A DNA stretch of 47,090 nt, taken from assembly GCA_029263125.1 (NCBI GenBank), contig JAJCYD010000025.1, forward strand, positions 1 to 47,090. The letters are read 5' to 3'. Made by a program: the position numbers and the translations under genes. Below, one piece after another: positions 22,481-30,572 of the stretch. Positions within the stretch are counted from its first letter, which is position 1; each line of letters opens with the position of its first letter. A model generated the notes under the pieces. It saw only the letters and a list, made by a program, of their open reading frames with translations, had not been told where the DNA came from and did not search any database. This DNA is from Solirubrobacteraceae bacterium (GTDB taxonomy: Bacteria > Actinomycetota > Thermoleophilia > Solirubrobacterales > Solirubrobacteraceae).

Positions 22481-23272
22481 TCAGCGCTTGTCGAGCTGGC
22501 CGGCCTCGAACTTCGCGGCGATCTCCGCGCCGCCGGCCTTGCGCGTGACCGTCGCCGACAGCTCGGGCGCGAAGCCGCTGATCGTGGCGCCGAGCTTCAG
22601 CGTCATCGGGGCGACGTCGATCTCGCCCTTGTTGCGCTCGATCGCGCGCAGCGTCGCCTTGGCGACGTGCTCGGGCGACTTCGTGCCGGTGCCCTTCGGC
22701 AGGGTCACGCCGGCGTCCTCGAACATGCCGGCGTCGCGGATGAAGCCGGGGAAGATCGCCGAGACGCCGACGCCCGAGTCGTGCAGATCGGCGCGCAGCG
22801 CACCGGCGAACCCGCGAAGGCCGAACTTCGTCGCGCTGTAGATCGCCGTCCCGCCCGCAGGCGCTTTGCCCGACAGCGACGACATGAAGACGATGTGGCC
22901 CGACCCACGGGCGACCATCGCCGGCACAAGCGCGTGGGCGAGCATGATCGGCGCGCGCAGGTTGACGAGCAGCGCGCGGTCGATCTGCTCCTCGGTGAAG
23001 GACTCTAGGCGGCCCGACGCCGGCAGGCCGGCGTTCGCGACGAGGATGTCGACGTCGGCGTGCGCCGCGGCGAGCGCGCGCACCGAATCGGCGTCTGACA
23101 GGTCGGCCGCGGCGATCGTCGCGCCGAGCTCCGCCGCGAGCGACGCGAGCACGTCGGCGCGGCGTCCAGACAGCACGACGTTCGCGCCCGCGGCCCGCAG
23201 CGCGCGGGCGATCGCATGGCCGAGGCCGCCGGTGGCGCCGGTGACAAGCGCGGTCTTCCCCGAGACGTTCAC
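22481..23272 (-). CDS. Short-chain dehydrogenase/reductase
   Basis: A 263-residue classical SDR. Cofactor loop TGATGGLG (11-18), R37/R38 after the second strand (suggesting NADP preference), NAG at 80-82, and the catalytic Ser at 131-132 with Y145 and K149 (YSATK). The substrate is unknown; the closest look is to the broad DltE/FabG-like oxidoreductases. The ATG overlaps the stop of the FIST gene (ATGA), so the two form an operon, though no functional link between them is known to me. Confidence 0.9.
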   Translation of the reverse strand: MNVSGKTALVTGATGGLGHAIARALRAAGANVVLSGRRADVLASLAAELGATIAAADLSDADSVRALAAAHADVDILVANAGLPASGRLESFTEEQIDRALLVNLRAPIMLAHALVPAMVARGSGHIVFMSSLSGKAPAGGTAIYSATKFGLRGFAGALRADLHDSGVGVSAIFPGFIRDAGMFEDAGVTLPKGTGTKSPEHVAKATLRAIERNKGEIDVAPMTLKLGATISGFAPELSATVTRKAGGAEIAAKFEAGQLDKR

Positions 23273-24432
23273 GGGGCGAAGATTGCCACGGTTGCGGTGA
23301 AGCCGTGCATGAAGTTCTGACCGCCGACAGGGCCGATCTCGCCGGCGGCAAAGAATCCGGCGGTCGGGATCGCGCCGAGCTCGGCTTGCAGCGCCGCCGC
23401 ATCATGGTTCGCCACGTCGAACATCCCTCGCCCGCGGCCGTTGCAGGTGAACATCAGCGCGCCCGCAGGGGCGTCGGTGCCAAGCGCCTCACGGCGCAGC
23501 CCGAGGGCGTCGTGCAGATCGCGGTCGGCGGAGGCGGCGTCGCGGGCATGTACGCGCACGACCTGGCCCGCCTCGATCGGCGCGCCGACGGAGATCGTGC
23601 CCGACTCGGGGTCGCCGCCGAGCACCGTGCGCACGAGGAAGTCGCCGTGCAGATAGTCCGGTCGCCCGCGCTCGACGACGATCCCCAGCAGCATCCCCTC
23701 GGCGAGGATCTGGCGCTCCTGCTCGTCGAGCTCCTCGATCACCGTCCGCAGCGCGGCCAGCGCGGGACGCCCCGCGAGCTCTTGGATGACGTGACCTTCG
23801 CCTGCGGTGATCGTCAGCTCGGGGCCGATCGGCGTGGCGCCCTGCGACACGCACGGCAGCAACTCGACGTCGTCGAAGCGCACCCCGACGGCACCGCCTG
23901 AGACGACCTCGTCGCCGAAGAACAGCGCCGCCTGTCCGCGCAGCGTCCGAGCGCTGGACACGCCTCCGAGGATCGGCACGCCGGGACAGGCCCCGTGCAG
24001 ATTGGCGAGCACCGCGTCGGTGGGAAAGGAGTAGGGGTCGGGCAGCAGGATCGCGCCGCCGGCGCCGCTGAGATCGGGTAGGCCGTGGATGGCGACCTCG
24101 TCCTGCACCTGCTGCACCTCGGCGTGGAAGGCCGTCGCCACGCCGCCGTCGAAGGACGCGGCCCACACCGCGACGGCGGTCGAGCCCTCGATCTCCCGCC
24201 CGTCGCCGACGATGCCCGACGCGCCGCAGCCGATCAGGACCTCGGGAGCGAGTACTGAGTGAATCGCCGCGAGCGTCGTCTCGGGTGCGGCGAGGTGCGT
24301 TCCCGACGCGAACACCACGGCCAGGTCGACGTCGCCCCCGTTCAGTGCGGCGGCGGCATCGACAGCGGCCTCCAGCGCTGCCGCCGGAGGATCGGAGGCG
24401 GTCGAGAACCCGCACGCGATGCGCACCGTCAT
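23269..24432 (-). CDS. FIST domain protein (FIST N and C)
   Basis: A 387-residue protein with the FIST sensory fold. The N-terminal half contains DLAVVFASGTHL and LIGCGASGIVGDGREIEG, then GVPILGGVSSART. The C-terminal half ends with MFTCNGRGRGMF, FFAAGEIGPVGG and NFMHGFTATVAIF. FIST domains are proposed to bind small ligands such as amino acids and are often linked to signal transduction; this one has no attached output domain. Start choice: ATG 24432 with TATGGT 10 nt before it; ATG 24447 (MVKRYMTV) is the alternative. Confidence 0.88.
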   Translation of the reverse strand: MTVRIACGFSTASDPPAAALEAAVDAAAALNGGDVDLAVVFASGTHLAAPETTLAAIHSVLAPEVLIGCGASGIVGDGREIEGSTAVAVWAASFDGGVATAFHAEVQQVQDEVAIHGLPDLSGAGGAILLPDPYSFPTDAVLANLHGACPGVPILGGVSSARTLRGQAALFFGDEVVSGGAVGVRFDDVELLPCVSQGATPIGPELTITAGEGHVIQELAGRPALAALRTVIEELDEQERQILAEGMLLGIVVERGRPDYLHGDFLVRTVLGGDPESGTISVGAPIEAGQVVRVHARDAASADRDLHDALGLRREALGTDAPAGALMFTCNGRGRGMFDVANHDAAALQAELGAIPTAGFFAAGEIGPVGGQNFMHGFTATVAIFAP

Positions 24433-24442
24433 GTACCGCTTG

Positions 24443-24478: not shown

Positions 24479-24529
24479 GGGGGTGTGCTGTTCTGTGAAC
24501 GCATAGGTGTCTCAGGACGGCACACCCCC
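24479..24529. repeat. 10-bp inverted repeat between FIST gene and miaA
   Basis: GGGGGTGTGC (24479-24488) and GCACACCCCC (24520-24529) are perfect inverted copies with a 31-nt spacer. The spacer holds a smaller dyad, GTTC-TGT-GAAC (24490-24500). It lies in the divergent promoter region and ends 15 nt before the miaA -10 box, so it may be an operator or an RNA hairpin. Confidence 0.6.
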
Positions 24530-24544
24530 GACGGCCGGTCGCCC

Positions 24545-24550
24545 CATACT
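24545..24550 (+). promoter_or_regulatory. -10 box (CATACT) of miaA
   Basis: CATACT, 7 nt before the GTG at 24558; it supports that start over the longer open frame from 24507. Confidence 0.4.
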
Positions 24551-24557
24551 TGGCTCC

Positions 24558-25463
24558 GTGCCCGCCGCCGGAGTGCTAGCGCTGTTCGGCCCGACCGCCG
24601 TCGGCAAGACCGACGTGGCGATCACGCTCGCCGAGCGCATGCGCGCGCGCGGCGAGCGGCCGGTCGCCGTGTCCGCCGACGCGCTACAGGTCTACGTCGG
24701 GATGGAGACGCTCACCGGTACACCCGGCGCGGAGCAGCGAGCGCGGCTGGAGCACCGGCTGATCGGCATTCGCCCGCTGGACGCGCGTTTCAGCGTCGCC
24801 GAGTACGCCGACCTGGCTCACGGCGAGATCGACGGGCTGCTCGCCGCGGGCGCCGCGCCGATCGTCGTCGGGGGCACGGGCTTGTACCTGCGCGCCGCGC
24901 TCGCCGAGCTGGCCCTGCGCCCGCCGCCCCGGCCGGGGGTGCGCGAGCGCTGGGAGGCGGAGCTGCTCGCGCGCGGGCCCGAGGCGCTGCACGAACAGCT
25001 CGCGCGTGACGCACCGTGGGCCGCCCGGACGATCGACCCGCACGACCGCCACCGCATCGTGCGCTCGCTGGAGCTGCTCGAACAGGGTGCGCTGATTCCG
25101 CCGCCCGGCCCCAACCGGCTGTGGACGACCGACACCCGCCATCCCACGCGCCTGGTCGGGCTGATCCGAGGCCGTGACGAGCTCTACGCGCGCATCGACG
25201 CGCGCGTGGATGCGATGGTCGCTGCGGGCGCGATCGACGAGGTTCGGCGCGCGGACGCGTCCGGCGCGTCGCCTACCGCACGCGTCGCGCTGGGCTTCGA
25301 GGAGTTGCTGCGCGGGGACATCGAGGCAATGAAGCAGCGCACCCGCCGCTACGCGCGCCGCCAGCTCACGTGGATGCGCAAGCTGCCGGATGTCGAGCTG
25401 GTCGACATCGCCGGGCGCGAGCCGGAGGAGATCGCGGCCGACATAGACTCGCCTCCGGCATGA
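24558..25463 (+). CDS. miaA: MiaA, tRNA dimethylallyltransferase
   Basis: A 301-residue enzyme that prenylates A37 of tRNAs, giving the substrate of MiaB. P-loop GPTAVGKT (11-18), the SADALQVYVGMETLTGTP segment, the GGTGLYLRA motif and the C-terminal RRYARRQLTWMRKL are all typical. The GTG at 24558 gives the canonical start (VLALFGPTAVGKT). Its stop overlaps the dapF start (ATGA). Together with dapF and dapL it forms a tightly coupled three-gene unit. Confidence 0.95.
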   Translation: MPAAGVLALFGPTAVGKTDVAITLAERMRARGERPVAVSADALQVYVGMETLTGTPGAEQRARLEHRLIGIRPLDARFSVAEYADLAHGEIDGLLAAGAAPIVVGGTGLYLRAALAELALRPPPRPGVRERWEAELLARGPEALHEQLARDAPWAARTIDPHDRHRIVRSLELLEQGALIPPPGPNRLWTTDTRHPTRLVGLIRGRDELYARIDARVDAMVAAGAIDEVRRADASGASPTARVALGFEELLRGDIEAMKQRTRRYARRQLTWMRKLPDVELVDIAGREPEEIAADIDSPPA

Positions 25464-26317
25464 CCGCCATCGCATTCGAGAAGTGGCAGGCGCTCGGCAA
25501 CGACTACCTCATCGTCGAGGAGCGCGTCCTGCCGTTCGCGCTCACCCCGGCGCGCATCGCGCGCGTCTGCGACCCGCATCTGGGGATCGGCTCGGACGGG
25601 ATCCTGCTGCTCTGCGAGCCCACCGCAGAGGGGTTCGTCGCGCGGCTGCGGATCTTCAATCCCGACGGCTCGGAGGCCGAGCTGTCGGGCAACGGCGCCC
25701 GCGAGGCGGTCATGTACCTGCGTGCAAGCGGCTGGACGGACGCCGAGCGCTTCTCGATTCAGACCGTCGCCGGGGAGATCCGCCCGCACATCACCGGGCC
25801 CGAGACCTGCACGCTGGACATGGGCCGCGCGCGCATCGCGTCGGCGGACTTCCCATCGGGCGGCGACGACGGCGCCGGCGTCCTGGAGGCGGGCGGGCGC
25901 ACGTGGCGCTTTCAGCACGTCCAGGTCGGCAATCCGCAATGCGCGATCCACGCGCCCGGTGTCGACGAGCTCGACGCCCTGGACCTGCCCGAGATCGGCG
26001 GCGCGATCGAGCATCACGAGCTGTTTCCCAACCGCACGAACGTGTCGTGGTTCGGCGAGCTCTCGCCGGGCGTCATCCGCGCGCGCATCTTCGAGCGAGG
26101 TGTCGGCGAGACGATGTCCTCGGGGACCGGCGCCAGTGGCGCGGCGATCGCCTACGTGCTGGGCGGCGGCGACTCGCCCGTCACCGTACGCCTGGACGGC
26201 GGCGAGCTCGTCATCGACGTGCAGGAGGATCTGCACTACACCCTCAGCGGCTGGGCGGTCCCCGTGTACCGGGGCGAGCTCGCCGAGCACTTTCGCAACG
26301 AACTGGAGAGCCTGTGA
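25460..26317 (+). CDS. dapF: DapF-family protein lacking both catalytic cysteines
   Basis: A 285-residue member of the diaminopimelate epimerase fold. Substrate-binding features remain: LGNDYLIVE, GIGSDGIL, FNPDGSEAELSGNG, VGNPQ and FERGVGET. Canonical DapF inverts LL-DAP to meso-DAP with two cysteines, one in GNGxRC and one in ETxxCGTGA. Here these positions are Glu82 (GNGAREAV) and Ser221 (ETMSSGTGA), read directly from codons GAG and TCG. The usual GNPH is GNPQ. The frame is intact with normal codon use, so this is not a pseudogene. Either a Glu/Ser pair does the chemistry (the related PhzF uses a Glu), or the protein has another role, or the cell keeps LL-DAP. It is coupled to miaA and dapL by 4-nt overlaps. 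Confidence 0.85.
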   Translation: MTAIAFEKWQALGNDYLIVEERVLPFALTPARIARVCDPHLGIGSDGILLLCEPTAEGFVARLRIFNPDGSEAELSGNGAREAVMYLRASGWTDAERFSIQTVAGEIRPHITGPETCTLDMGRARIASADFPSGGDDGAGVLEAGGRTWRFQHVQVGNPQCAIHAPGVDELDALDLPEIGGAIEHHELFPNRTNVSWFGELSPGVIRARIFERGVGETMSSGTGASGAAIAYVLGGGDSPVTVRLDGGELVIDVQEDLHYTLSGWAVPVYRGELAEHFRNELESL

Positions 26318-27480
26318 AGCCGAGCCGCCGCCTGGACCGCATCCCGCCGTACCTCTTCGCCGAGCTCGAGCGCAAGATCACCGCCAAGAAGGCGCAGGGC
26401 ATCGACGTCATCTCACTGGGGATCGGCGACCCCGACCGCCCGACCCCCGCGCTCGTCGTCGAGGCGATGCAGGAGGCGGTCACCGAGCCCGAGACCCACC
26501 GCTATCCCTCAAACCGCGGCCGCAAGGACTTCCGTGAGGCGGTGTCGGACTTCTACATGCGCCGCTTCGACGTCGAGCTCGATCCCGAGACGGAGATCAT
26601 GCCGGCGATCGGCGCGAAGGAGTGCATCTTCAACCTCAGCCTCGCGTTCCTGGATCCAGGCGACGCGGCGCTGTCTGCCGATCCGGGCTACCCGGTGTAC
26701 ACGAGCGGACCGATCATCGCGGGCGCCGATCCAGTGCTTATGGCGCTGCGCGCCGAGCACGGCTTCACACCCGATCTCGGCGCGATCTCCGATGCCGACC
26801 GGGCGCGCGCGAAGCTCATGTTCTTCAACTATCCGAACAACCCGACGGGCGCGGTCGTGCGTCCCGGGTTCTTCGAGCAGGCCGTCAACTACTGCGCCGG
26901 CACCGACATCCTCGCCGTGTCCGACAACGCCTACTCCGAGACGACCTACGACGGATATCGCGCGCCGTCGTTCCTCGCGACGCCCGGCGCCAAGGACGTC
27001 GGCGTCGAGGTCTTCTCATGGTCCAAGGGCTACAACATGACCGGCTGGCGCTGCGCGGCGATCGTCGGCAACGCCGAGGCGATCGAGCACTACTGGCGGC
27101 TGAAGACGAACATCGACTCCGGCCTCTTCGAGGCTGTACAACTCGCGGGGATCGCGGCGCTCAGCCCGGACGCCGACGGCGACAAGCTGGAGATGAACGC
27201 GCTCTACACCCGCCGGCGCGACCTCGTCGTCGACGCGCTGCGCGAGATCGGGGTCGACGTGACGCCGCCGAAGGCCACGATCTACGTGTGGGCGCCGATC
27301 CCGGCGAGCTTTGACAGCTCCGCCGCCTACTGCGAGCACGTGCTCGAGGAGGCCGGCGTCGTGATCTCCCCCGGCGGGGCGTACGGACCCAACGGCGAGG
27401 GCTTCTTCCGCATCTCGCTGACCACGCCCGACGACCGCCTGCTGGAAGCCGTCAAGCGCCTGGGCGCGCTCGCCGGCTGA
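26314..27480 (+). CDS. dapL: LL-diaminopimelate aminotransferase (DapL-like)
   Basis: A 388-residue fold-type I PLP aminotransferase. N-terminal RIPPYLFAELERKI and VISLGIGDPDRPTP, then FFNYPNNPTGAVV, SDNAYSETTYDG and the PLP lysine K238 in SWSKGYNMTGWR. These features match DapL enzymes, which convert tetrahydrodipicolinate to LL-DAP in one step and bypass succinylation. Position directly after dapF (GTGA overlap) supports that role. Other class I aminotransferases share these motifs, so substrate specificity is inferred. No acyl-pathway genes (dapD, dapE) are seen in the window. Confidence 0.85.
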   Translation: MKPSRRLDRIPPYLFAELERKITAKKAQGIDVISLGIGDPDRPTPALVVEAMQEAVTEPETHRYPSNRGRKDFREAVSDFYMRRFDVELDPETEIMPAIGAKECIFNLSLAFLDPGDAALSADPGYPVYTSGPIIAGADPVLMALRAEHGFTPDLGAISDADRARAKLMFFNYPNNPTGAVVRPGFFEQAVNYCAGTDILAVSDNAYSETTYDGYRAPSFLATPGAKDVGVEVFSWSKGYNMTGWRCAAIVGNAEAIEHYWRLKTNIDSGLFEAVQLAGIAALSPDADGDKLEMNALYTRRRDLVVDALREIGVDVTPPKATIYVWAPIPASFDSSAAYCEHVLEEAGVVISPGGAYGPNGEGFFRISLTTPDDRLLEAVKRLGALAG

Positions 27481-27550: not shown

Positions 27551-28636
27551 GTGTCCAAGCACAAGCAGAAGGCCGACAGGACAGCGCCGCAGGAACCAAA
27601 GCCAGGACTGTTCGCCTCGCTGGGCAACGGGGCCAAGTGGCTGGGCGGCATCGTCGTCGTGGCACTCGTTGGCGCGCTCGTGCCGTTGGTCGTCGGCCGG
27701 CTGTCCGGGCCCGAGGAGCTCGGCGCCAAGCTCGACAAGGTGGGAGTCCGCGTGCCTGTCACGCTGGCGCAGTTCAAGGCCAGCCGGGTCGACCGGCCCG
27801 CATCCTTTGAGGGCGAGCGCCGGACGTTGCGCCTCGTCGCGGCCGTCGCCCTCGAGACAGCTGACGACGACTCCACCGCGCAGTCCAGCGATCGTCGAGC
27901 GGTCGAAGAGCCGGTGACCCCGGTAGAGCCTCCTCCTCCTCCGACGACGGGCACCACCGTCCCGCCGACCCCGTCGACCGTCCCTGACACCGCAACGACG
28001 CCCGAGCGCGACAGCGAGGACGCGATCCCGAACACGGCCACGACCTCGGACGGCACGGGCGACCCGGTCGTCACTCCGCGACTGCGCCCCGGCGCGGTCG
28101 CGAGCCTGAGCGCGGGCATCACCCAGGCGGTTCAGGCCGCGCCGTCTCCGATCACCCTGCCGGGACCCTGCCTCGAGAACCCGCTTGACGAGGAGTGCGG
28201 GCTCAACACGCTGCAGATTCAGATGGGCGTGGTCAACGCCGACGGCGTCGCCACATCTGTGTCTCCCGCGAAGGCCGAGCGCCGGCTGACAGCGATCTTC
28301 GCTGCCACGCGCACGCGCCCCGCGCGATCGGATCCGTCAAAGCGGGAGCTGATCGGCATCACCGTCGACTTCAACGTCCAGCTGACGGGCTTTCGCGGAC
28401 AGACCGTCGACATTCGCTGGGAGCTGCTGACCAACGGCGGCGACGCGGAGGTTCCGCGCGCGCTGTCGGGCCGCGAGCGCGTCCTGCTGCTCAAGGGCCA
28501 GGCAGACAAGGACACCGCGGGCGACGAGTTCTGGGTGCCGATGCCCAAGGCCAAGGGGCCGTACATCATCCGCGTCGGCGTCTACAACCAGGACAACACG
28601 CGCCTGGACTTCGCCGTGACCGAGCCGTTCACCTGA
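27551..28636 (+). CDS. Membrane-anchored protein of unknown function
   Basis: A 361-residue protein, not recognised. A basic N-terminus is followed by one transmembrane segment (about 31-49, WLGGIVVVALVGALVPLVV). A short ordered part follows, then a Pro/Thr-rich linker (about 120-170, with TPVEPPPPPTTGTT). The C-terminal part (about 200-361) alternates beta-like segments, e.g. LIGITVDFNVQLTGFRG, DIRWELLTNGG and YIIRVGVYNQDNTRL. The end resembles beta-sandwich domains used for binding at the cell surface, but that is only an impression. A disulfide is possible between the two cysteines in PGPCLENPLDEECG. It stands alone between dapL and a convergent membrane gene. Confidence 0.7.
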   Translation: MSKHKQKADRTAPQEPKPGLFASLGNGAKWLGGIVVVALVGALVPLVVGRLSGPEELGAKLDKVGVRVPVTLAQFKASRVDRPASFEGERRTLRLVAAVALETADDDSTAQSSDRRAVEEPVTPVEPPPPPTTGTTVPPTPSTVPDTATTPERDSEDAIPNTATTSDGTGDPVVTPRLRPGAVASLSAGITQAVQAAPSPITLPGPCLENPLDEECGLNTLQIQMGVVNADGVATSVSPAKAERRLTAIFAATRTRPARSDPSKRELIGITVDFNVQLTGFRGQTVDIRWELLTNGGDAEVPRALSGRERVLLLKGQADKDTAGDEFWVPMPKAKGPYIIRVGVYNQDNTRLDFAVTEPFT

Positions 28637-29196: not shown

Positions 29197-29271
29197 GGGC
29201 CCCGCGGTGACGAAAGGATGAACCGCCCCGCTGTTCGCGCCATGTAATGGGTGCCTGCGAGCCTGGCGCCC

Positions 29272-29715
29272 ATGCTCCTGATTCGCAGCATCGCCATCGC
29301 GCTCTCGCTTGCCGTGGCGATGGTCGCCTTCGGCCCCGCAGCTCAGGGCACCGCGAAGAAGCGTGCGGCCAAGAACGTCGAGCTGCTCAAGGGCTCGGTG
29401 CGAAACGGCGACTCGCGCCACCCCGCCAGCGGCCGCGCCGCCGTCATCAAGACCACGAAGGGCAGGCGCCTGCTGACGGTCCGCAACCTCAAGCTCCGGC
29501 CCGCGGGCGCGGTGCGGGTGTACCTCGTCCCGCGCAAGGTGCGTGGCAGCAGGATCGGCAAGGACTTCAAGAACCTCGGCAAGCTCAAGGGCAACCGCGG
29601 CAATCAGAAGTACACGATCCCCCGCAGCGTCGACCTGCGCAAGTACAACACCGTGATCTTCTGGTGCGTGCCATTCACCCAGACGCTCGGGCGAGTCAAC
29701 CTCAGACGCTCGTGA
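29272..29715 (+). CDS. Secreted DM13-domain protein
   Basis: A 147-residue protein with a signal peptide (MLLIRSIAIALSLAVAMVAF, then AAQGTA) and a DM13 domain: GSVRNGDSRHPASGRAAVIK, VRVYLVP, LGKLKGNRGNQKYTIP and NTVIFWCVPF with C132. DM13 domains are proposed to take part in electron transfer through this conserved cysteine; the evidence is bioinformatic. A GTG at 29251 would add seven residues; ATG 29272 gives a cleaner signal peptide. No clear -10 box was found at the usual distance. The stop overlaps the start of a second DM13 gene. Confidence 0.8.
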   Translation: MLLIRSIAIALSLAVAMVAFGPAAQGTAKKRAAKNVELLKGSVRNGDSRHPASGRAAVIKTTKGRRLLTVRNLKLRPAGAVRVYLVPRKVRGSRIGKDFKNLGKLKGNRGNQKYTIPRSVDLRKYNTVIFWCVPFTQTLGRVNLRRS

Positions 29716-30572
29716 CCCTGCTGTCGAAACTGCTCGCGCCCCTGGCCGTCATCGCGACGCTCGCGGCGGGCACGTGGTTCTGGGGCGGCGTGGTGGCGCC
29801 CGGATACACGAGCGCGGTCGTCCTCGTCGCGGCGTGGTTCGTGCTGTGCAGCGTGCTGTTCGGGCGCGCCGGCAAGGCCCGGCCCGAGCTTCGCTGGTGG
29901 CTGCGCGGCACGTTCCTCGCCTGCTCTGCGGTCTCGCTGGTCGCGTTCTACATGACGTCGCTGCGCGACACGGTCGTCAACGAGACGCTGCCTGACGCAG
30001 TGCCAGCCAGCCAGCTCGCCTCAGAGCCAGGCGACCTCGACCCCCTCGCTCCGCAGCCCGAGCCAGGCGACGAGGAGGACCGGGACGCATCCGAGCCGGC
30101 CGAGGAGCCCACGAAGGCCGCGAAGTCGAGCCGGACCGAAGCTTCGACGGCCGCGAAGCCCAAGCCATCGGCGACGACCACGTCGCCTGCCGCCAAGCCC
30201 AAGCCCGCGGCAAGTCCTCCGCCCCCGCCACCGCCCGCGCCCGCGGCGAACGTCGTCGAGCGCATCGGCGCGGTCCAGCCGACGTCGCACAGCGCCAAGG
30301 GCACCGCGCGCGTCGTGAAGCTCGCCTCCGGCGGGCGCACGCTGACGCTCAGCGACGGCTTCGAGGTCGATCCCGGCCCGGAGATTCGCGTCTACCTGGC
30401 GACGGACGCGAGCGCTCAGACCTTCAAGGATCTCGGCAAGCTCAAGGGCTCAAAGGGCGACCAGCGCTATGACATCCCGGACGGCCTGGATCTCGACGCC
30501 TACGACACGGTCGTCCTCTACTGCCTGCCGTTCACCGTGTCGGTGGCCAAGGCCGATCTGCGGCGCGCCTGA
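29712..30572 (+). CDS. Membrane protein with C-terminal DM13 domain
   Basis: A 286-residue protein with about three transmembrane segments near the N-terminus (10-30, 33-52 and 66-83). A long disordered Pro/Ala/Lys linker follows (about 100-178, with a poly-Pro run), then a DM13 domain (about 180-286). The domain contains SHSAKGTARVVKL, IRVYLAT, LGKLKGSKGDQRYDIP and DTVVLYCLPF with C271. It is a paralogue of the upstream protein: LGKLKG and the Y-x-IP and C-x-PF elements match. The GTG start overlaps the preceding stop (GTGA), so the two are made together: one free in the exterior, one tethered to the membrane. Confidence 0.82.
   Translation: MTLLSKLLAPLAVIATLAAGTWFWGGVVAPGYTSAVVLVAAWFVLCSVLFGRAGKARPELRWWLRGTFLACSAVSLVAFYMTSLRDTVVNETLPDAVPASQLASEPGDLDPLAPQPEPGDEEDRDASEPAEEPTKAAKSSRTEASTAAKPKPSATTTSPAAKPKPAASPPPPPPPAPAANVVERIGAVQPTSHSAKGTARVVKLASGGRTLTLSDGFEVDPGPEIRVYLATDASAQTFKDLGKLKGSKGDQRYDIPDGLDLDAYDTVVLYCLPFTVSVAKADLRRA

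What the first reader, a model, noticed from the sequence alone, without database searches (positions are those of the whole stretch)
25460..26317. DapF homologue without both catalytic cysteines, intact and in a dap operon
The two-base mechanism of DapF needs a thiol on each side of the substrate. Here the positions are Glu82 (GNGARE) and Ser221 (ETMSSGTGA), and GNPH has become GNPQ, while substrate-binding segments are kept. The gene is translationally coupled to miaA and to a DapL-like aminotransferase and shows no decay. Possibilities: a Glu/Ser-based epimerase or isomerase, a binding or regulatory protein, a different substrate, or peptidoglycan that retains LL-DAP.
Basis: partly seen in the sequence, partly recalled or inferred. 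Interest (0 to 1): 0.75.

Follow-up and report, generated by a model that had tools for sequence, protein, structure and literature searches.

The report
DAP epimerase with two catalytic serines
A soil bacterium's only enzyme for making the cell-wall amino acid meso-diaminopimelate has both of its textbook catalytic cysteines replaced by serines, the swap is fixed throughout its order and recurs in other Actinomycetota, and a cultured relative with the same swap still has meso-diaminopimelate in its wall, which suggests that a chemistry thought to need thiols can run on serines.

Summary
The core observation is right: this intact, sole DapF homologue lacks both catalytic cysteines. One position is misassigned. 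H. influenzae Cys73 is the residue before GNG, so the window has Ser76, not Glu82; Cys217 aligns with Ser221 and His159 with Gln160. The protein is Ser/Ser. The Glu82 column is E or Q in the order and M, V, C or I elsewhere. Ser76, Ser221 and Gln160 are invariant in 88 distinct order sequences, while 13 of the 15 serine columns vary; all distal DAP-binding residues are kept. Ser/Ser, Ser/Cys and Cys/Ser versions recur across Actinomycetota: parsimony needs 13 changes at site 1 and 9 at site 2. The slot miaA-dapF-dapL holds a Cys/Cys DapF in another family of the class, so these are orthologues. The Conexibacter woesei type strain (matched by exact genome length) has only a Ser/Ser DapF, no DAP dehydrogenase, has LysA, and a published meso-DAP wall. 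A retained LL-DAP wall and decay are therefore unlikely. Most likely this is a working DAP epimerase using a serine pair, although laboratory Cys-to-Ser mutants of relatives keep almost no activity. Activity is inferred, not shown.

The parts
25460..26317 (+). dapF, Ser/Ser variant, 285 aa, ATG start, TGA stop
   Evidence: TIGR00652 185.7 bits against a cut-off of 114.65; PF01678 136 bits; AlphaFold2 mean pLDDT 91.6
25685..25687 (+). codon TCG of Ser76 = H. influenzae DapF catalytic Cys73 position
   Evidence: phmmer alignment to solved DapFs; MAFFT with H. influenzae DapF; sequence
   Evidence: E 71 / Q 17 in the order; M, V, C, I elsewhere
25937..25939 (+). codon of Gln160 (GNPQ) = His159 position; Gln in all 88 order sequences, His in the sampled DapFs outside the order
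26120..26122 (+). codon TCG of Ser221 = catalytic Cys217 position
24507..25463 (+). miaA, overlapping dapF by ATGA
   Evidence: TIGR00174 155.7 bits, cut-off 148.65; IPPT PF01715; synteny
26314..27480 (+). dapL-like LL-diaminopimelate aminotransferase, GTG start overlapping the dapF stop (GTGA)
   Evidence: NF006756 LL-diaminopimelate aminotransferase 523.1 bits, over its cut-off of 507; below the TIGR03540 equivalog cut-off (494.3 against 593.25); start codon

Best explanation
The gene is the orthologue of dapF and makes this organism's active DAP epimerase, which interconverts LL- and meso-DAP for MurE and LysA, with a Ser76/Ser221 pair in place of the thiol/thiolate pair. Shown: orthology, fold, positions of the two serines, invariance, kept substrate-binding residues, sole copy, no known alternative route in nearly all relatives, and a published meso-DAP wall in C. 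woesei, which carries the same variant. Inferred: that the enzyme epimerises DAP, and that one serine takes the alpha-proton as an alkoxide while the other donates one from the opposite face, with helix N-terminal dipoles and desolvation in the closed site tuning them. Change of the His159 site to Gln and of the conserved Glu next to Asn190 to Ser196 in the order may be part of the re-tuning (speculative).
For: Sole PF01678 gene in the window's genome and in C. woesei even at E<=10. No DAP dehydrogenase over cut-off in 128 of 131 order genomes, C. woesei included, nor in 64 other genomes from Ser-variant DapF groups. LysA in 94 of 101 order genomes, own genome included. Ser76, Gln160, Ser221, N14, N67, N158, N194, E212, R213 invariant in 88 sequences. 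Purifying selection. Same slot miaA-dapF-dapL in Ser/Ser and Cys/Cys lineages. Repeated changes at both sites: 13 and 9 on the tree. Fold matches DapFs at Z 30-35. Natural precedent in the wider superfamily: Ser93/Cys236 4-hydroxyproline epimerase (PMC4113996).
Against: Single Cys-to-Ser mutants of PddB keep less than 0.1% activity, and the same is reported there for M. tuberculosis DapF (PMC8225329); HisR C67S and C209S are greatly reduced. No activity has been measured for any Ser/Ser member. No new conserved general base distinguishes Ser/Ser from Cys/Cys sequences, so how serine becomes basic enough is unexplained. Ser/Ser paralogues beside a Cys/Cys or other DapF exist in families f26 and f40, so Ser/Ser alone does not prove DAP epimerase function.
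Confidence: 0.72

Rival explanations
1. The protein epimerises DAP, but not by a serine two-base mechanism: an ordered water, Glu212 or the substrate's own amine does the proton transfer, and the serines only position ligands or hold the helix ends.
For: Glu212 (H. influenzae Glu208) is invariant and lies near the alpha-amine in solved DapF (PMC12039745). Serine is intrinsically a poor base and Cys-to-Ser mutants of relatives are almost dead.
Against: Glu208 is just as conserved in Cys/Cys enzymes and did not rescue their mutants. Both sites stay strictly Ser, by both TCN and AGY codons at site 2. In the related 4-hydroxyproline epimerase the Ser is assigned as catalytic.
Confidence: 0.14
2. 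The Ser/Ser protein has lost DAP epimerase activity, or changed substrate or become a binding protein, and an unrelated, unrecognised enzyme makes meso-DAP.
For: Cys-to-Ser mutants of relatives are almost inactive. DapF-fold proteins with other substrates exist (histidine, O-ureidoserine, 2,4-diaminobutyrate).
Against: It would need the same replacement in several lineages while the gene stays in its dap slot under purifying selection with all distal DAP ligands intact. No DAP dehydrogenase in C. woesei.
Confidence: 0.11
3. These organisms keep LL-DAP in the wall and do not need an epimerase.
For: DapL makes LL-DAP directly; some Actinomycetota have LL-DAP walls (general knowledge).
Against: Published meso-DAP walls for C. 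woesei, for the order, and for Solirubrobacter. LysA, which needs meso-DAP, is present.
Confidence: 0.02
4. First reader's Glu82/Ser221 acid-base pair.
For: Glu82 is present in the window.
Against: It is not at the catalytic position and is Gln in 17 of 88 order sequences.
Confidence: 0.01

Closest known systems
Diaminopimelate epimerase DapF (TIGR00652, PF01678; H. influenzae 1gqz, Anabaena 9mro, C. glutamicum 5m47)
   Same: Fold (Z 30-35, 29-36% identity), operon partner dapL, all distal substrate ligands, Glu208/Arg209 pair, helix N-terminal placement of both catalytic positions
   Different: Ser/Ser instead of Cys/Cys, Gln instead of His159, Ser196 instead of the usual Glu two residues after Asn190
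H. influenzae DapF C73S and C217S laboratory mutants (PDB 2q9h, 2q9j)
   Same: One Ser at the same position in each
   Different: Made single mutants; here both are Ser naturally and fixed across an order
4-hydroxyproline 2-epimerase B9JQV3 (Ser93/Cys236) and t3HypD B9K4G4 (Ser90/Thr256), proline racemase superfamily (PMC4113996)
   Same: Natural catalytic Ser at the first position of a racemase of the same fold
   Different: Another family and substrate; the only two-base epimerase precedent found keeps one Cys
Ser/Cys DapFs of Acidimicrobium ferrooxidans (G470, genome length match) and related families
   Same: Homologous DapF gene, Ser at site 1, GNPH kept
   Different: Second Cys kept

Membership tests
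DapF, canonical diaminopimelate epimerase | Score over curated TIGR00652 equivalog and PF01678 cut-offs | tested here: met
   185.7 bits against 114.65; 136 bits against 34.7
DapF, canonical diaminopimelate epimerase | DapF fold of two pseudo-symmetric domains | tested here: met
   AlphaFold2 pLDDT 91.6; best PDB matches are DapFs and O-ureidoserine racemase, Z 30-35
DapF, canonical diaminopimelate epimerase | Catalytic Cys73/Cys217 thiol pair | tested here: not met
   Ser76/Ser221; no other Cys takes their place: Cys37, Cys117 and Cys161 are not at the catalytic positions, and 117 and 161 vary in the order
DapF, canonical diaminopimelate epimerase | Distal DAP-binding residues Asn64, Asn157, Asn190, Arg209, plus Asn11 and Glu208 | tested here: met
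   N67, N158, N194, R213, N14, E212 invariant in 88 order sequences
DapF, canonical diaminopimelate epimerase | LL-DAP/meso-DAP epimerase activity | not testable with these tools
   inferred from the meso-DAP wall and gene content of C. woesei
Proline racemase superfamily (PF05544) | Pfam match | tested here: not met
   only PF01678 found at E<=0.001; fold similarity is lower, Z about 24-26
PhzF (PF02567) | Pfam match | tested here: not met
   only PF01678 found; PhzF chains at Z about 25-26, 20% identity
DAP dehydrogenase (Ddh) as alternative meso-DAP route | TIGR01921 match over cut-off in the genome | tested here: not met
   none in own genome or C. woesei; 3 of 131 order genomes

The most novel reading that the evidence does not exclude
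A cofactor-independent amino-acid epimerase that abstracts and returns an unactivated alpha-proton with two serines and no thiol at all, evolved several times in Actinomycetota by replacing the cysteines of DapF one after the other.
Probability: 0.55. Interest if true: 0.85.

Novelty: new variant of a known kind. Interest (0 to 1): 0.7.

Why it matters
DapF is a textbook case of how a weak thiolate base removes a proton of pKa about 29, and an antibacterial target whose aziridino-DAP inhibitors alkylate the cysteines (PMC12039745). If natural Ser/Ser enzymes work, the thiol is not essential. A ready series of homologues (Cys/Cys, Ser/Cys, Cys/Ser, Ser/Ser+His, Ser/Ser+Gln) then makes the question of how proteins tune these bases directly testable, and such bacteria should resist cysteine-directed DapF inhibitors. 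They would also lack the disulfide redox switch reported for C. glutamicum DapF (PMC5296763). Annotation pipelines call these proteins plain DapF, so the swap goes unseen.

Tried and rejected
Literature searches for C73S/C217S with DapF, for cysteine-to-serine or 'replaced by serine' with DapF and for DapF with Thermoleophilia/Solirubrobacterales listed no report of natural Ser DapFs; only open-licence PMC is held, and one search listed 12 of 126 papers. The idea that a catalytic Cys moved elsewhere was rejected: Cys37 and Cys161 are at non-catalytic columns, and Cys161 is A, V, L or T in some order members. Search for a compensating residue shared by all Ser/Ser sequences and absent from Cys/Cys ones found only the two serines. 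First dN/dS values included read-through upstream of the start codon and were replaced by trimmed ones. One search prints window residues 73 too high for the same reason. Phyla other than Actinomycetota were not surveyed (no handles). No promoter or terminator pattern in the operon.

Full report
Observation. The ORF 25460-26317 (+) is intact, 285 codons, ATG start, and the only PF01678 gene in the genome (53 contigs, 95.3% complete); a second search at E<=10 found nothing else credible. It starts inside the miaA stop codon (ATGA) and ends in the GTGA that starts a DapL-like aminotransferase gene. Family models: DapF TIGR00652 185.7 bits (cut-off 114.65), PRK09276 LL-DAP aminotransferase 523 bits, MiaA TIGR00174.

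Which residues are catalytic. The Anabaena structure paper names Cys75 and Cys224 as catalytic and puts them at the N-termini of helices 2 and 4, with Cys75 bonding to the backbone of Gly76. The model of the window protein (11-row alignment, mean pLDDT 91.6, pTM 0.87) has helices at 77-89 and 222-234, so Ser76 and Ser221 cap exactly these helices. Fold comparison: DapF chains and O-ureidoserine racemase at Z 30-35, including the H. influenzae C73S and C217S mutants; PhzF and hydroxyproline epimerases lower, about 23-26. The pair is therefore Ser/Ser. Glu82's column is E 71 / Q 17 in the order and mostly M, V, C, I elsewhere.

How far it extends. A DapF-like gene is found in 192 of 201 genomes of the order, 111 of 112 good ones. 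All 88 distinct full-length sequences read from the order have Ser, Gln, Ser at the three positions. Two families of the same class (f7, f11) have Ser/Ser with the usual His; genus g51 of family f9 has Ser/Cys; families f5, f6, f8, f10, f12 and the rest of f9 have Cys/Cys. Across 396 genomes of the phylum, two DNA patterns for Ser before GNG hit 34 (TCN) and 32 (AGY) genomes, with 1 hit for the reversed control pattern of the first. All 60 of these that were fetched as loci were DapF: 23 Ser/Ser and 37 Ser/Cys. These counts are lower bounds, since the patterns require flanking residues. Cys/Ser occurs in three families. On a tree with these columns removed, parsimony needs 13 changes at site 1 and 9 at site 2; the order's Ser/Gln/Ser set is one clade, and Ser/Ser+His needs at least 4 changes even on well-supported branches only (quick tree, some long branches; direction not inferred).

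Selection. In the 88 order sequences (mean pairwise identity 59%, lowest 43%) only 43 columns are invariant. Ser76 and Ser221 are the only invariant ones among the 15 serines of the window protein; N14, N67, N158, N194, E212, R213 and Q160 are also invariant. Ser221 is written with TCN and AGY codons, so selection acts on the residue. dN/dS of pairs is 0.07-0.38. This is not a decaying gene.

Orthology. miaA, dapF and dapL are neighbours in 10 named Solirubrobacterales MAG loci and in C. woesei, though a gap separates miaA from dapF in five of the MAG loci, and in Ser/Ser lineages f11, f46 and f49, and in a Cys/Cys genome of family f9. In f7 and in one order genome (L275) miaA-dapF stay together without dapL directly next to them. 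The same gene, in the same slot, has changed its catalytic residues.

Is meso-DAP made? Genome G198 is a single contig of 6,359,369 bp, the published length of the Conexibacter woesei type strain. Its only DapF is Ser/Ser (L061), it has LysA and no DAP dehydrogenase over cut-off. Its peptidoglycan is A1gamma with meso-DAP, and the same paper states this for the whole order (PMC3035278); Solirubrobacter also has meso-DAP. DAP dehydrogenase occurs in 3 of 131 order genomes, all of one genus, and in none of 64 other genomes from Ser-variant DapF groups. The known routes to meso-DAP are DapF and Ddh (general knowledge), so the Ser/Ser DapF is the natural candidate. An unknown third route cannot be excluded.

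Mechanism. Shown: position, invariance, substrate ligands, gene content. Inferred: Ser76 and Ser221 act as general base and acid on opposite faces of the alpha-carbon. Against it stands the near-inactivity of engineered Cys-to-Ser single mutants (PddB and M. tuberculosis DapF under 0.1%; [quoted passage not shown] For it stands a natural Ser93/Cys236 4-hydroxyproline epimerase with the same fold (PMC4113996) and Ser as one base in PLP serine racemase. Re-tuning candidates in the order: Gln at the His159 site, Ser196 where Cys/Cys enzymes have Glu in 98%, Gly227 for Ala. No single residue apart from the two serines marks all Ser/Ser sequences. I recall that UniProt marks sites 159 and 208 as possible pKa modulators of the cysteines; this was not checked here.

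Verdict. The finding is real and broader than stated, with one residue misassigned. Filed as a Ser/Ser variant of DapF, an orthologue that very likely works as DAP epimerase, but which fails the catalytic-Cys criterion of the canonical family. The enzymology is untested.

Noticed in passing
L265, L266, L267 (genomes G410, G538, G459): Second DapF-like genes with Ser/Ser and an altered second motif (ASAAGA, SSAAGA, SSATGA) beside another DapF in the same genome; substrate unknown.
   Followed up: partly
L239, L244, L257 (families f23, f44, f50): Cys/Ser DapFs: first Cys kept, second replaced by Ser.
   Followed up: no
G254, G325, G329 (genus g23 of the order): These three genomes carry a clear DAP dehydrogenase besides their DapF; probably a later gain.
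   Followed up: no
window 23269-24435 (-): FIST N + FIST C domain protein divergent from miaA; the neighbourhood is kept in several Solirubrobacterales including C. woesei.
   Followed up: partly
window 27551-28636 (+): 361-aa ORF downstream of dapL with no Pfam match; not seen near dapL in the relatives compared.
   Followed up: no
window 29251-29715 and 29247-30572 (+): DM13-domain protein (PF10517) at 29251-29712; an overlapping ORF in another frame ends in a similar stretch, so two DM13-like genes may lie in tandem.
   Followed up: no
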